Source: Bdellovibrio sp. NC01
GTDB taxonomy: Bacteria; Bdellovibrionota; Bdellovibrionia; Bdellovibrionales; Bdellovibrionaceae
DNA: 64,000 nt
Assembly (NCBI RefSeq): GCF_006874625.1
Contig: NZ_CP030034.1
Span: forward strand, 2,294,001 to 2,358,000
Direction: 5' to 3'
Positions within the stretch are counted from its first letter, which is position 1. Each line of letters starts with the position of its first letter. Shown here piece after piece: positions 859-7,376 of this stretch. The translations under genes were made by a program, and so were the position numbers. A model generated the notes under the pieces. That model searched no databases, was not told the DNA's origin, and worked only from the letters and a program-made list of their open reading frames with translations.

Positions 859-876
859 TCGCAACGACTACTCTTT
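850..876. terminator. Bidirectional hairpin containing both stop codons
   Basis: A perfect 12-bp inverted repeat with a 3-base loop (CAA) lies between two convergent genes. The TAG stops of both genes sit inside the two arms. Leftward transcripts end in a good U-rich tract (the complement of 841-849); rightward transcripts have a shorter TTT tail. Confidence 0.8.
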
Positions 877-3057
877 AAGTTTGTAGCGCTTCAATAATAA
901 TGAATTCGAAACAACTGACACGGAACTCATAGCCATAGCCGCACCGGCGATAACCGGGTTCAAAAGACCGAACGCTGCCAACGGAATACCCAAGACGTTA
1001 TAGATAAAGGCAAAGAATAAATTCTGACGAATTTTCTTTAACGTCACTTCCGATAAGTGCAAGGCGTGAACGACAGATTGCAAATCATTCTTCATCAAAG
1101 TCACATCGGCAGTTTCGATGGCAACATCCGTACCTGATGACATTGAAAAACTCACGTCCGCCATCGCTAATGCCGGCGCATCATTCACACCATCACCCAC
1201 CATCGCGACGATCTGTTTTTTGCGTTTAAGTCCTACGATAACATTTGCTTTATCCGAAGGCTTCACACCCGCTTTAAAATCAGTAAGACCTGCCTGTTTT
1301 GCGATTTCTCGAGCTGTGCCTTCGTTATCGCCTGTTAACATGATAACTTTCACGCCGCGCGATTGTAACGCATGAATCGCTGCTTTCGAGCTTTGACGAA
1401 TTTTATCAGCGACACCGATATAAGCCAGAATGCGCTCTTCACTCGATAAGACCATGATGGTATTGCCCGACGCTTCTAAATCACCCATCACAGCTTGATC
1501 CAAAAATGCGCCATCAGCACTCCATGCAGCTTGTCCCAAACGATATTTCTTTCCACTCACGACACCTTCAATACCATGACCTTGGCTTGCAGTGAAATTC
1601 TGAATGGGCAACAGAGACAGTTCATTTTTTTTCGCGCGATCCAAAATCGCATGTGCTAATGGATGCGAAGAACCGTTTTCAAGACTGGCGGCAATTTGCA
1701 GGACATCAAGTTCTCGCGCACCAGACACAAGATGGATGCGTGTGACAACCGGTTTACCTTCAGTGATAGTGCCCGTTTTATCTAAGACCAGGACATCGAT
1801 TTTTTCAGCCAACTCTAACGCTTTGGCGTCACGGAATAAAATTCCGGCTTGTGCTGCCTTTCCGATTCCAACCACAACAGCAGTTGGCGTTGCCAATCCT
1901 AAAGCACACGGACAAGCGATCACTAAAACGGACACCGCTGAAACGAAGGCCACCTGCAAATCACCAAGAATCAACCACGTCGCGATAAAAGTTAAGACAG
2001 CAATACCTACAACAACAGGGACGAAAATTCCCGAAACCTTATCGGCCAATCTTTGAATTGGCGCTTTAGAGCCTTGCGCAGCCGTGACTATTTTTATGAT
2101 TTGCGCTAACTGAGTTTTCGCGCCCACCCCCGTCACTTGCACCTTTAACAATCCATCTTGATTGATCGTTGCCGCATACACGTGATCGTCTTTAGATTTC
2201 GCGACCGGCATACTTTCGCCAGTTAGCATTGATTCATCGACGCTCGACGCTCCATCTACCACAACACCGTCAACGGGAATGCCTTCACCATTTTTTACTA
2301 AAACGATATCGCCCGGCTGTAACTCTTCAATCGCGACTTGCACAAAATTTCCGTCTTGTTCACGCAACGCCGTTTTCGGTTGAAGTTTTACTAAACCTTC
2401 AACCGCTTCTGATGTTTTACCTTTGGCGCGACTTTCAAGAAGTTTACCTAAAAGAATTAAAGTAATAACAGCTGTGCTGGCTTCAAAATAAAGGTGATAA
2501 TTTTCCCAACGTGCAAGGATCACAATCACGCTTAACAAATAAGCCATCGAAGTTCCCAATGCGACTAACACGTCCATATTTGCACTCTTATTGCGAAGAG
2601 CATAATAAGCCCCGCGATAAAAACGCCAGCCAATCCAAAACTGCACAGGGGTTGCAAGCAACAACTGCAACCATGCTGGCAAAAACATATGATGTGAGCC
2701 CGTGAACATCATGCCCATCTCAAAAAGAAACGGCAAAGTTAGCACGGCTGAAACTATGAAATGTGTTAGGTCTTTACGATACTCTGCTTGAGCGCGCTCT
2801 TTGATTTCTGCGGCAGAGCTTTCTTCATCGATCGTGAAAGCCTGATAACCAATTTCACGAATCGCTTTAAGAAGTTCATCTGTGTTCGCAACACCATCTG
2901 TGAACTCGACGTGAGCTTGCTCTGTCGCAAAATTGACCTGCGCCTTTACATTCGGGAATGAGTTGAGCGTTTTTTCAATTTTCGCCGCGCAATTCACGCA
3001 CGACATACCGATCAGTTGTAAGTCCGTACTTTGCTTTTCAGATGAAACGATTTCCAT
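868..3057 (-). CDS. copA: Copper-translocating P-type ATPase (CopA-like)
   Basis: A P1B ATPase of about 729 residues that pumps Cu(I) out of the cytoplasm at the expense of ATP. It has an N-terminal heavy-metal domain (GMSCVNC, residues 17-23), the actuator TGES, the membrane metal site CPC near residue 383, the phosphorylation motif DKTGT near 426, the SSHPL motif of the nucleotide domain and the hinge GDGVNDAPA. The last helix carries MSSVSVVSN, the pattern of Cu(I) rather than Zn/Cd pumps. I start at 3057 because AGG lies just upstream; an ATG four codons earlier has no ribosome site. Single N-terminal metal domain. It diverges from a His-rich exported protein that may be a partner. Confidence 0.93.
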
Positions 3058-3185
3058 AATTAACCTCACACCCTAGATATACGGCAGAATTTCTCTTCAA
3101 CCCAAGAAGTATATATTTTTTTGGTTTGTCACAAATCTCCAACCTCGCTCCTAGAGTTAAACGAACGATATGCACAGGAGTATTC

Positions 3186-3623
3186 ATGCGTTTGGCCGTC
3201 TCATTTTTTATATTGGTTCTTAGCTTCTCTTTGAATGTCTTTGCTCATGGTGAAGAAAAACCGGGACCTCATGGTGGTCACATCAAAATGCCTGGTGGTT
3301 TCCATACAGAGCTAGAAATGGACCCCCAACAAGGCGCACACATCTTTCTTGTGGATATGAACTTCGAAAATCCCACTGTAAAAGATTCAAGCATCCAAGC
3401 GCGTTTCAAATCCGGAAAAACCGAGATTCCTTTCACGTGTTCTGTGATGGGTGGCAATCATTTCCACTGCGTACCAAGCAAAAAACTACCAGCAAGCGGT
3501 CAATTGCTTATTAAAGCCACTCGTGAAAAATTCGTTGGCAACGAAGTCGCATATGATTTGCCACTGAAAGCTTTCGCCTCCACGGACGCCCCGGCAAAGA
3601 CTGAAGACCATAGCCACCATTAA
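3186..3623 (+). CDS. Exported His-rich protein next to copA
   Basis: About 145 residues with a clear signal peptide ending in FAHG. The mature N-terminus carries HGEEKPGPHGGHIKMPGG, rich in His and Met, and the C-terminus ends in EDHSHH, both suggesting periplasmic metal binding. Two Cys lie in the middle (FTCSVMGG and FHCVP). The start at 3186 follows AGGAG; the frame is open 20 codons further upstream but without a ribosome site. It is divergent from copA across 128 bases, so joint metal control is reasonable. I do not recognise a named family; a copper chaperone or scavenger is an inference from composition and position. Confidence 0.7.
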   Translation: MRLAVSFFILVLSFSLNVFAHGEEKPGPHGGHIKMPGGFHTELEMDPQQGAHIFLVDMNFENPTVKDSSIQARFKSGKTEIPFTCSVMGGNHFHCVPSKKLPASGQLLIKATREKFVGNEVAYDLPLKAFASTDAPAKTEDHSHH

Positions 3624-3702
3624 TATCAGTACTGGCTTATTTGTTTGCCCTTAAAAGCCAAATAAGCCATACCTTCCTCACATCAAACCAGTGAGGATAT
3701 TC

Positions 3703-4281
3703 GTGAAGTTCGTATCTGCTTTAGTTGCGTTGTTTGTTTCCGCTGCCGCGTTTGCCGCTCCCACTCTTGAGCAAGAAGTAGCGGCGCTTAAAGATGCTCC
3801 CCGTGATTATTTCGACACAGGAGCTATCTGCGAAGAAGTGGCACGCCTTGAACTTCAGAATGAATTCCAAGCCCCACAATACAAAGTGCTAACTGGTATT
3901 TCTTATGACAATGGTGATGGCACTGCTGGCGAATTAGACGTGATTGTTTTTGATAACAACACAAACAAAGTTATTAAAATCGCTGAAGTGAAATGCTGGA
4001 ACAAATTGGATGCTGGCCTTGTGAAAGCAAAAAAACAAAGAGCACGTTTCATGGGTTACCGTGCTAACGCGAAAGAGTTGTCTTTCAAAAAAACTCACAG
4101 CACAGAAACTTTCACGAAAGATCAATTCGCTTACGTGAATGACTTCATCACAATCGGCCAACAAGGCGCGGTTGCACGCGGATACGATCGCGAGTTGGAA
4201 TACTCATTACGTGACCTGATGACCTTAAGAGAAATGATGATGAAGTGCCAACACGATGGAAAGTGCGCAAAGCAAAACTAA
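3703..4281 (+). CDS. Exported PD-(D/E)XK nuclease-like protein
   Basis: About 192 residues, GTG start at 3703 preceded by GAGGA; a second GTG four codons upstream overlaps that ribosome site. A signal peptide ends near AAAFAA. The mature protein shows a helix with Glu (CEEVARLELQNEF), then GELDVIVFD, then IAEVKCW: Asp79, Glu95 and Lys97 with the order and spacing of the PD-(D/E)XK catalytic core. A basic helix with Lys-Lys-Gln-Arg follows. Four Cys (43, 98, 182, 188) could form disulfides after export. A secreted or periplasmic DNase would suit a predator, but function is inferred from motif only. Single gene ending at a strong terminator. Confidence 0.65.
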   Translation: MKFVSALVALFVSAAAFAAPTLEQEVAALKDAPRDYFDTGAICEEVARLELQNEFQAPQYKVLTGISYDNGDGTAGELDVIVFDNNTNKVIKIAEVKCWNKLDAGLVKAKKQRARFMGYRANAKELSFKKTHSTETFTKDQFAYVNDFITIGQQGAVARGYDRELEYSLRDLMTLREMMMKCQHDGKCAKQN

Positions 4282-4324: not shown

Positions 4325-4356
4325 AAAAAAGGCTGCCCAAGAGCAGCCTTTTTTAT
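4325..4356. terminator. Bidirectional intrinsic terminator
   Basis: The arms AAAAAGGCTGC and GCAGCCTTTTT surround a 6-base loop, with A-run and T-run on the two sides. It serves the nuclease-like gene from the left and the long queA-to-DUF366 operon from the right. Confidence 0.9.
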
Positions 4357-4378: not shown

Positions 4379-4948
4379 CTAAGGCACCGGGCGAACTTTT
4401 TGTGTCGCTTGTACGATCTCACCATACTCAATTTTAAATAGATGCATAAGATCCTCAGCAACGGTCTTTGGATTGAGCTTCAAATCCCCTAAACTTGTCG
4501 TTTTAACTGGCGTGCCTTCGTTCGTTACGTTCATCGCAAAGTGCACCATCACTGACACTGGCGAGCGAGTCGCAATGCTGATTGAAAGCTTGCGGTCTTG
4601 CCAATAAATATCGTCGCCGTTACGTACAAGCTGTTGGCCATTTAAAGCGCCCGCTGCTTTTGTTTGCAAATAATCGCGCACAATAGAGGCAAACAATCTT
4701 TGAATCGCCACACCTGAAAACAGATCGCGATCAAAGATCTCGATGATAAAATGAAGCATTTCATCACTTTCGATCACCGCTTGTGCTAAAAGGTCCTCAC
4801 CATCCACCATGTGAGTAAACGGAATATCACAAGCACCCTGCCAAGAAATAATCGATGGACCTAAGATGCCGTGATCAAGATACGCAAACAACGAACGCAA
4901 TTGACTGCCGTCGTAAGCAAATTTTTTATCAATGAATAATGATTCCAC
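4379..4948 (-). CDS. DUF366 family protein
   Basis: A 189-residue cytosolic protein with the family signatures as I recall them: YDGSQLRSLFAY near the start, GPSIISWQGACDIP, HMVDGEDLLA, MLHFIIEIFD and a QRL segment. The function of DUF366 is unknown. GTG start two bases after queC, whose end supplies an AAGGAG ribosome site, so the two are translationally coupled. It is the last gene of an operon that also holds queA, tgt and queC, which suggests a part in 7-deazaguanine (preQ0/queuosine) metabolism; that is inference from position. Confidence 0.8.
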   Translation of the reverse strand: MESLFIDKKFAYDGSQLRSLFAYLDHGILGPSIISWQGACDIPFTHMVDGEDLLAQAVIESDEMLHFIIEIFDRDLFSGVAIQRLFASIVRDYLQTKAAGALNGQQLVRNGDDIYWQDRKLSISIATRSPVSVMVHFAMNVTNEGTPVKTTSLGDLKLNPKTVAEDLMHLFKIEYGEIVQATQKVRPVP

Positions 4949-4950
4949 GC

Positions 4951-5649
4951 TTAGGCTCCTTTAAAAAGATGGGCTACATCGACACCCGCAGAAGCAAAGG
5001 CACGCTTCGCACGTTGGCAGGATTCACACTGCCCACACCATTGATCGCCCGTAAAATAACATGGCCAGATCAAATCCCATGGTACTTTCAAACCTTGCCC
5101 TAAACGCACGATAGCTGGTTTATCCAAATGAGCGGTGTAACAACCCACCGTCACGTGATTCGCCGTTGAATACCACAACGATTTCGTTGCAGCTTCCAAG
5201 AATTCACGGGAATTATCTGGGAATGTCGCAGCCTCTTCCGCATTGAACCCGGGAATAACGGCATCAGCACCCAACGCTTCTGCATAAGCAGCCGCGATGT
5301 TAATAAAGATCCCATTACGGTTGGGCACCCACACCGACTTTGCTGTGTCGGCTGATTTTTGCAAGTTATCAATTTCAACAGCACTGCCTGTTGGCACTTC
5401 TTGATCTTCAACGATCAAAGACGACTTATTGAAATCTTTAAACCATGTCACATCCATCACTTTGTGTGGGATGTTTAGGTGTTTACAAATTTTCGCAGAT
5501 TGTTCGATTTCTTTTGCCGCAGCTCTTTGACCGTAATTAAACGTCAACGCCAAAACGACTTCATGGCCATGCTTGATGGCTTCAAATACGTTCACCGTCG
5601 AGTCAAGACCCGAGGAAAGAAGGGCAACTACTTTTTTAGATGATCTCAT
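4951..5649 (-). CDS. queC: 7-cyano-7-deazaguanine synthase QueC
   Basis: Converts 7-carboxy-7-deazaguanine to preQ0 with ATP and ammonia, the last step before preQ0 reduction in queuosine synthesis. The 232-residue protein has the PP-loop SSGLDST near residue 13 (family usually SGGxDS) and the zinc-binding cluster CGQCESCQRAK near the C-terminus, plus the conserved FNAEEAATFPDNS segment. Its ATG overlaps the recJ stop as ATGA. queA and tgt of the same pathway lie at the head of the operon; queD, queE and queF are not in this window. Confidence 0.95.
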   Translation of the reverse strand: MRSSKKVVALLSSGLDSTVNVFEAIKHGHEVVLALTFNYGQRAAAKEIEQSAKICKHLNIPHKVMDVTWFKDFNKSSLIVEDQEVPTGSAVEIDNLQKSADTAKSVWVPNRNGIFINIAAAYAEALGADAVIPGFNAEEAATFPDNSREFLEAATKSLWYSTANHVTVGCYTAHLDKPAIVRLGQGLKVPWDLIWPCYFTGDQWCGQCESCQRAKRAFASAGVDVAHLFKGA

Positions 5650-7376
5650 GTCGCAGCCTTTAGATCACGAATAAGAATTTGGATAGATTTCTGACCAGCG
5701 AAGTAATTCCACTGAAGCTCGCCCAAGATATCATAGAATCCAGGAACTGACTGCAGAGTCTCCACTTGTCGAGGTGTCGGAGTAAAGAGCAAAGCTTCCA
5801 TCGAAGTGTGCGTTTCAGGATCAGCCAACTTCAAACGAAGATGCCCGCCTTTCAGTTCGCGTTTCGATAAAACTTCGACTCTAGAAAAATGAATCAACGG
5901 GATCGAGAATCCCGCACCAAAAGGCCCCACGAAATCGTACCACTTCATCAAGCCCGAACTGACTTCTGGCAGTTTTGCTTCGATGTCGTAGTAAATTTCC
6001 AAAGGCTTTGGTTTTTCGCGCAAATCAGAAAAATGCGAAGACAGTCTTTCAACTAGACTTGGCACTTTCGTTTCCGCAATTTCAAAACCCGCCGCCGCCG
6101 AGTGACCACCAAAACGGCTCATCAATTCTGCCGCTGAACCCATCGCTTCAACAAGACAGGCTTCCTGTCCTTGCGGAAGTCGGGCACTGCCGACGATCAT
6201 GCCGTCATCACCCAATGAGCCCACGAACGCCGGTTTGTTGTAAACTTGAGTCAACTTCGTTGCGATCAAACCTACAACACCGCGATGGAAATTTTTAGAA
6301 GCAACGAAAACAAAGTCTTTATGAGGCCACTCTTTAAGTAGTTCTTGAGCTTCTGTTTCCGCATCACTTTGCAATTGCACACGAGTGGAATTGTTCTTCA
6401 TGACCTGACGAACCATATCTCGCGCATTTGCAGGATCTTCTAAAAGGAAAATATCAATTGGCAAGATACCTGATTCCATACGCGACAAAGCATTCAACTT
6501 TGGCGCAAAACGAATCGCAACATCTTGGCTTGTTAAAGGACGACCGGTTAAATCCAACTCTTCAAGTAAAGCTCGAAGTCCTGCTCTTTTAGTTTCAGCA
6601 AGCTTCACCAATCCGTGTTTCACTAACACACGATTGTCGTCAACTAGCGGTACCATATCGGTCAAAGTGCCGATCGTGAAGTAGTCGAGCACTTCTTTCA
6701 AATCCCAATTGTTTTTAGGCAGTTGTGGGTTGTCTTGAAAGTATCTTTTCAAGCCACGGAGCAAGTAAAACGCAACGCCCGCCCCGCACAAATAACCTAA
6801 ACCACTTTCGCAAGTTCCCTGATTCGGGTTCACAACGACAAAGGCATTGGGAATAGTTTCTGTAGGCAAATGGTGATCCGTTAAAATCACATCAACACCC
6901 AACTCCTGGGCGCGATCAACTGCCGCGTGAGCAGTAATACCCACGTCAACGGTGATGATCAAACTTACACCTTGGGCTTTCAACTCTTCCACTGCGTGTG
7001 CGTGAAAGCCGTAACCTTCAGACAGACGCTTCGGTTGATAATGTAGAACGTGTGGGAAACCTAAAGCCAACATGCCCGTTTTTAAAAGAGCTAGACCTGA
7101 AGTTCCATCCAGGTCGAAGTCAGCATAGATGCAGATTTTTTCGCCATTTAAATAGGCCTGGCCTAGACGCTCAAGAGCTTGAGACATCCCCTTTAAAGCA
7201 AGAGGATCTTTCAAATCAGCGAGCTTAGGAAACAAAAGCTTGTCAACTTGTTGAGCCTCAGTGAATCCGCGAGCTGCGAGAAGCTTGCTAATCAGTGTCG
7301 GCCACTGCTGACCTTCCACTGGTGGAGGCGTTGCCACCTCCGTCTCACTTTCTCGCAATTTCCATAACGGATTCAC
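5646..7376 (-). CDS. recJ: Single-stranded-DNA exonuclease RecJ
   Basis: A 576-residue 5'-3' ssDNA exonuclease of the DHH superfamily, used in recombination and mismatch/base-excision repair. Motifs: ADFDLDGTSG near residue 85, TVDVGI near 145, LTDHHLP near 167, and the DHHA1 motif GGHSAAAGFEI near 433; the C-terminal OB-like domain follows. GTG start with GAGG upstream. It sits 17 bases after secF and overlaps queC, inside the sec/queuosine operon. Confidence 0.95.
   Translation of the reverse strand: MNPLWKLRESETEVATPPPVEGQQWPTLISKLLAARGFTEAQQVDKLLFPKLADLKDPLALKGMSQALERLGQAYLNGEKICIYADFDLDGTSGLALLKTGMLALGFPHVLHYQPKRLSEGYGFHAHAVEELKAQGVSLIITVDVGITAHAAVDRAQELGVDVILTDHHLPTETIPNAFVVVNPNQGTCESGLGYLCGAGVAFYLLRGLKRYFQDNPQLPKNNWDLKEVLDYFTIGTLTDMVPLVDDNRVLVKHGLVKLAETKRAGLRALLEELDLTGRPLTSQDVAIRFAPKLNALSRMESGILPIDIFLLEDPANARDMVRQVMKNNSTRVQLQSDAETEAQELLKEWPHKDFVFVASKNFHRGVVGLIATKLTQVYNKPAFVGSLGDDGMIVGSARLPQGQEACLVEAMGSAAELMSRFGGHSAAAGFEIAETKVPSLVERLSSHFSDLREKPKPLEIYYDIEAKLPEVSSGLMKWYDFVGPFGAGFSIPLIHFSRVEVLSKRELKGGHLRLKLADPETHTSMEALLFTPTPRQVETLQSVPGFYDILGELQWNYFAGQKSIQILIRDLKAAT

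What the first reader, a model, noticed from the sequence alone, without database searches (positions are those of the whole stretch)
3703..4281. Exported protein with a PD-(D/E)XK nuclease core
A signal peptide precedes an Asp79 ... Glu95-x-Lys97 pattern with the right strand/helix context. PD-(D/E)XK nucleases are nearly always cytosolic; a secreted one with four Cys would be a candidate prey-DNA-degrading enzyme and I recall no named family with this layout.
Basis: partly seen in the sequence, partly recalled or inferred. Interest (0 to 1): 0.65.

Follow-up and report, generated by a model that had tools for sequence, protein, structure and literature searches.

The report
Exported nuclease family of predatory bacteria
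A small exported protein of a Bdellovibrio predator has the fold and all catalytic residues of a DNA-cutting enzyme superfamily that normally stays inside cells, belongs to an unnamed family that we found only in the Bdellovibrio phylum, and has relatives in which the chain is circularly permuted; it may help digest prey DNA, but its activity is untested.

Summary
ORF 3703-4281 (+) encodes a 192-aa protein with a Sec-type signal peptide. The Asp79...Glu95-x-Lys97 pattern alone is chance-level (32 of 54 window ORFs carry such a pattern), but Glu44, Asp79, Glu95, Lys97 and Gln112 are invariant in 57 of 57 relatives. The AlphaFold2 model (pLDDT 94, pTM 0.87) has the alpha-beta-beta-beta-alpha-beta core, and nearly all leading structural matches are PD-(D/E)XK nucleases. 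The family passes no Pfam or NCBIfam cut-off; closest are DUF6602, NERD, HamA and YraN. It occurs as 1-4 copies in about half of the same-family genomes; we found it only in Bdellovibrionota. Unexpectedly, a second branch carries the C-terminal strand-helix module at the N-terminus: a circular permutation, supported by profile alignment (score 43.3 against at most 16.7 in 100 shuffles) and predicted secondary structure. Cys43 and Cys98 flank two catalytic residues; both are Cys in every canonical member and non-Cys in every permuted one, suggesting a disulphide. Most likely it is a disulphide-stabilised, metal-dependent nuclease acting outside the predator's cytoplasm, plausibly on prey nucleic acid. 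Activity, substrate and role in predation are inferred, not shown. The three HD100 homologues are probably not among the exported nucleases already studied.

The parts
3703..4281 (+). Gene for exported PD-(D/E)XK-fold protein, 192 aa, GTG start
   Evidence: ORF and family alignment; model
3693..3697 (+). Ribosome-binding site GAGGA, 5 nt before the GTG at 3703
   Evidence: read from sequence
3703..3756 (+). Sec-type signal peptide, residues 1-18, cleavage after AFA
   Evidence: sequence; hydrophobic N-terminus in all 57 members
3817..3864 (+). helix alpha-A (39-54) with invariant Cys43 (3829-3831) and Glu44 (3832-3834)
3922..3954 (+). strand beta2 (74-84) with invariant G76-E77-L78-D79; Asp79 at 3937-3939
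3967..3993 (+). strand beta3 (89-97) with catalytic Glu95 (3985-3987) and Lys97 (3991-3993); Cys98 follows at 3994-3996
4006..4068 (+). helix alpha-B (102-122) with invariant Lys108 and Gln112 (4036-4038) and nearly invariant Arg115-Phe116
4105..4254 (+). C-terminal strand-helix module (residues 135-184), the part found at the N-terminus in the permuted relatives
4246..4266 (+). Cys182 and Cys188, second conserved Cys pair
4325..4354 (.). stem-loop with T-rich flanks on both sides, likely shared terminator with the convergent gene 4379-4948
   Evidence: 1 site found, 1.1 expected by chance, so weak; sequence

Best explanation
A Sec-exported, metal-dependent PD-(D/E)XK nuclease. The signal peptide takes the chain across the inner membrane. 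There Cys43-Cys98 probably form a disulphide that ties helix A to the active-site strand, and Cys182-Cys188 a second one in the C-terminal tail. Asp79 and Glu95, possibly with Glu44, hold one or two divalent metal ions; Lys97 orients the attacking water; Gln112 on helix B completes the site. The enzyme cuts phosphodiester bonds of DNA (less likely RNA) outside the predator's cytoplasm: in its own periplasm, or after release into the prey. Dependence on a disulphide would keep it inactive in the predator's cytoplasm, so no immunity partner is needed. Shown: the gene, the invariance of the residues and, by confident prediction, the fold. Inferred: disulphides, metal, catalysis, substrate, site of action and role in predation. 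Confidence for 'active exported nuclease' is about 0.8; for 'acts on prey nucleic acid' about 0.45.
For: E44, D79, E95, K97 and Q112 are 57/57 invariant, and the matching E131, D167, E183, K185 and Q197 are 10/10 invariant in the permuted branch. The model has pLDDT 94.2 and the right topology. Foldseek and VIA leading hits are mostly PD-(D/E)XK: 3ijm, BstEII, BpuSI, NucC, Card1, Can2, Hachiman 8zue (Z 7.5), XisH, McrBC. The PADLOC PD_DExK model matches the window protein at 1e-5 and 38 of 57 members at E up to 1. The commonest weak Pfam hits of the members are mostly families I know as PD-(D/E)XK: DUF6602, NERD, HamA, HSDR_N_2, UPF0102. Profile alignment puts Asp79 on the Asp, and Glu95/Lys97 on the ExK, of DUF6602, NERD and YraN. 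Spacing of 15 residues between D79 and E95 equals EcoRV Asp74/Asp90/Lys92 (my knowledge). N-terminal export signals occur throughout. C43/C98 are Cys/Cys in all canonical members and Leu / Leu-Ala-Val in all permuted ones.
Against: No single sequence or fold match is individually strong (best Foldseek E 2.2e-3; best VIA Z 7.5, inside the range the tool warns may be a common arrangement). Some PD-(D/E)XK-fold proteins are not nucleases. There are no activity, expression or localisation data. Copies are absent from about half of the same-family genomes, two of the window's own genus among them, so the family is not essential for the lifestyle.
Confidence: 0.78

Rival explanations
1. Periplasmic housekeeping or barrier nuclease: it stays in the predator's own periplasm and degrades incoming DNA (phage, free DNA, prey DNA taken up) rather than being released into prey.
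For: The signal peptide alone predicts only crossing of the inner membrane. Defence nucleases (HamA, Card1/Can2, NucC) are among the nearest folds.
Against: Several paralogues in many Bdellovibrio genomes fit a degradative repertoire better; no defence-gene neighbours were seen at the loci read.
Confidence: 0.3
2. PD-(D/E)XK fold without nuclease activity, for example a DNA-binding or structural exported protein.
For: Some members of the superfamily have lost catalysis (general knowledge); no activity data exist.
Against: All five active-site residues are invariant in 57 canonical and 10 permuted members, which a non-enzyme would not need.
Confidence: 0.12
3. The motif is a coincidence in an unrelated fold.
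For: The bare motif is common by chance (32 of 54 window ORFs).
Against: Model topology, fold matches and invariance.
Confidence: 0.03

Closest known systems
DUF6602 (PF20247)
   Same: Profile alignment in register: Asp of beta2 with Asp79, ExK of beta3 with Glu95/Lys97; 34 of 57 members give a weak hit, best 3.2e-4
   Different: Window protein 13.2 bits against a cut-off of 27; in the three true DUF6602 proteins read there is a longer insert between D and ExK and no obvious signal peptide
NERD (PF08378) and YraN/UPF0102
   Same: PD-(D/E)XK core; D and ExK align with Asp79 and Glu95/Lys97; NERD also has Trp after ExK ('ETKNW' against 'EVKCW')
   Different: Below cut-off (14.3 against 22.1 bits); known as cytosolic or membrane-anchored proteins (my knowledge)
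HamA nuclease of Hachiman defence (8zue)
   Same: Top VIA match, Z 7.5, rmsd 4.0 over 157 residues, 5% identity; weak HamA hits in Pfam and PADLOC for some members
   Different: Cytosolic partner of helicase HamB; here a signal peptide and no helicase next to the window gene
Known exported nucleases of B. bacteriovorus HD100 (Bd0934, Bd3507, Bd1244 Endonuclease I; Bd1934, Bd1431 SNase)
   Same: Sec-exported nucleases in the same organism group, expressed in stages of predation (PMC3593177, PMC7925074)
   Different: Unrelated folds; the three HD100 homologues at 1214194, 1489179 and 2070042 are probably none of the listed nucleases
T6SS-delivered toxins with a VRR-Nuc domain, TseV (PMC9635880)
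   Same: Nuclease of this superfamily leaving the producing cell
   Different: Delivered by a dedicated machine as part of a larger toxin; here a stand-alone domain with a Sec signal peptide, and no immunity candidate was seen beside it

Membership tests
PD-(D/E)XK nuclease superfamily | alpha-beta-beta-beta-alpha-beta core | tested here: met
   AlphaFold2 model pLDDT 94.2 with this order of elements; fold matches
PD-(D/E)XK nuclease superfamily | Asp on beta2 and (D/E)-x-K on beta3, conserved | tested here: met
   D79, E95, K97 57/57; positions; distances in the model not measured
PD-(D/E)XK nuclease superfamily | acidic residue on alpha-A and Q/K on alpha-B (common extra features) | tested here: met
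   E44 and Q112 57/57
PD-(D/E)XK nuclease superfamily | metal-dependent phosphodiester hydrolysis | not testable with these tools
   needs biochemistry
NERD (PF08378) | curated Pfam cut-off 22.1 bits | tested here: not met
   14.3 bits; no NERD match in own genome at E 1e-5
DUF6602 (PF20247) | curated Pfam cut-off 27 bits | tested here: not met
   13.2 bits; the family member found by the DUF6602 search (G172) 22.2 bits, below cut-off
HamA / Hachiman | HamA domain above cut-off, helicase HamB next to it | tested here: not met
   no HamA match for the window protein and only weak hits in other members; neighbours are a P-type ATPase, a small exported protein and a queC-type gene
Endonuclease I / SNase exported nucleases of Bdellovibrio | their Pfam domains | tested here: not met
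   no such Pfam match

The most novel reading that the evidence does not exclude
A Sec-exported, disulphide-dependent PD-(D/E)XK nuclease family specific to Bdellovibrionota, which exists in two circularly permuted architectures with the same active site, and serves to digest prey nucleic acid outside the predator's cytoplasm, self-protected because it folds only after export.
Probability: 0.4. Interest if true: 0.68.

Novelty: new variant of a known kind. Interest (0 to 1): 0.55.

Why it matters
How Bdellovibrio digests prey DNA is open: deleting bd1244 and bd1934 together, or bd0934 and bd3507 together, leaves predation intact, and an unidentified extracellular nuclease has been considered possible (PMC3593177, PMC7925074). 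This family is a concrete candidate, probably missed because no annotation model recognises it; HD100 has three copies. The two chain orders of one exported nuclease, with paired Cys switching between them, also give a natural case of circular permutation in the PD-(D/E)XK fold.

Tried and rejected
Phages, plasmids and IMG/VR viral contigs: no relatives, so no sign of a mobile or viral origin. A profile search of PDB sequences gave only chance hits, so the assignment rests on fold and invariance. Foldseek on the permuted model gave no meaningful hit; I expect this for a permuted chain and did not count it against the fold; VIA listed Card1, Cdn1 and Can2-type nucleases first, at Z about 4. I considered that Bd1501 (an exported 'ATP-dependent exoDNAse') might be a family member: tag spacing from pilA (Bd1290) and bd1431 puts Bd1501 near 1.41 Mb in HD100, where no family match exists, so it probably is not; its gene was not itself identified. 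A search for HD100 expression data failed because the exact locus tags could not be read off. Searching other phyla with the genome search was not possible; the restriction to Bdellovibrionota rests on one pattern-based scan of 84,980 species. A literature search for circularly permuted PD-(D/E)XK families gave nothing usable, so I do not claim that this is the first.

Full report
Where it lies. The window is part of a 3,975,853-base single-contig Bdellovibrio-type genome. The genus is inferred from relatives: genome G003 is B. bacteriovorus HD100, since a published bd1431 primer matches it exactly and its length, 3,782,950, equals that of HD100 as I remember it; G003 is in the same genus as the window's genome.

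The observation. ORF 3703-4281 (+) starts with GTG after GAGGA and encodes 192 residues with an evident Sec signal peptide. The motif by itself is worthless as evidence: 32 of 54 window ORFs and 86% of shuffled copies of this protein contain a comparable D...[DE]xK. Conservation is what counts. In 57 canonical sequences (the window protein and 56 relatives), G40, C43, E44, Y68, G76, E77, L78, D79, E95, V96, K97, C98, K108, Q112 and G155 do not vary at all.

Fold. The AlphaFold2 model from these 57 sequences has mean pLDDT 94.2 and pTM 0.87, with helix 39-54, strands 60-69, 74-84 and 89-97, helix 102-122, strand 147-152 and helix 169-184. That is the PD-(D/E)XK core. Foldseek and VIA-align matches are individually weak but mostly of this superfamily. 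Sequence methods agree: the PADLOC PD_DExK model matches 38 of 57 members at E up to 1, best 4.2e-7; weak Pfam matches are mainly to DUF6602, NERD, HamA, HSDR_N_2 and UPF0102; and profile alignments with DUF6602, NERD and YraN proteins put their catalytic D and ExK on D79 and E95/K97 (the scores are low because the target alignments hold one to three sequences).

The family. The own genome has three members, HD100 three, other genomes one to four; 33 of 66 same-family genomes and 50 of 291 sampled genomes of the phylum have a match. A scan of 84,980 species found relatives only in Bdellovibrionota, and phage, plasmid and viral collections gave none. In the tree the window gene is a single long branch inside a clade of 24 that also holds the own 1713k copy; its neighbours (ATPase, queC- and recJ-type genes) are not those of the HD100 relative, so it looks like a lineage-specific extra copy. 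Another clade sits directly upstream of mutL in 12 of 14 loci.

The permuted branch. Distant hits (L069-L080) contain the core but end after helix B, and carry the '...G..GxxxGFxxE....R' module before it. The cores align with probability 99.5% and E 2.5e-22. The C-terminal module of the canonical form aligns with the N-terminal module of the other with score 43.3, E 3.4e-9; 100 column shuffles reached at most 16.7 and other segments at most 11.0. The predicted secondary structure of the two modules follows the same order: strand, short helix, short strand, helix. This is best read as a circular permutation. Full-length permuted members occur in 25 sampled genomes and two of these genomes (G176, G186) hold both forms. 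The active-site residues are invariant in the ten permuted sequences aligned.

Cysteines. Canonical members have four Cys in the mature part in 51 of 57 cases. C43 precedes Glu44, C98 follows Lys97; in the permuted form both positions are non-Cys in 10 of 10 (Leu at the first; Leu, Ala or Val at the second), and another invariant pair (C41, C176) appears. C182 and C188 are present or absent together. This pattern suggests two disulphides, and agrees with an oxidising, extracytoplasmic site of action.

Mechanism and rivals. I take it as an exported nuclease of the one-metal or two-metal PD-(D/E)XK type. That it meets prey nucleic acid is plausible but not shown; a role in the predator's own periplasm is the main rival. 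Earlier work on exported HD100 nucleases covered Endonuclease I and SNase proteins and Bd1501 (PMC3593177, PMC7925074); the homologues of this family are at other map positions and have probably never been tested.

Limits. No coordinates of the models were available to measure distances; signal peptides were judged by sequence, not by a dedicated predictor; the permuted model rests on ten sequences; restriction to the phylum rests on one pattern scan.

Noticed in passing
L042 2617-3204 and 3260-5167; L085 (HD100) about 5180-5733: The third paralogue clade lies directly upstream of mutL in 12 of 14 loci, a conserved pairing of an exported nuclease-like gene with a mismatch-repair gene.
   Followed up: partly
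L069-L080, L113-L132: Circularly permuted relatives with the strand-helix module moved to the N-terminus and a different Cys pair.
   Followed up: yes
window 868-3069 (-) and 3126-3623 (+): Heavy-metal P-type ATPase next to a small exported His-rich protein (ends DHSHH), perhaps a metal-handling pair.
   Followed up: no
window 4325-4354: Stem-loop with A-run and T-run on both sides between convergent genes, likely a two-way terminator.
   Followed up: no
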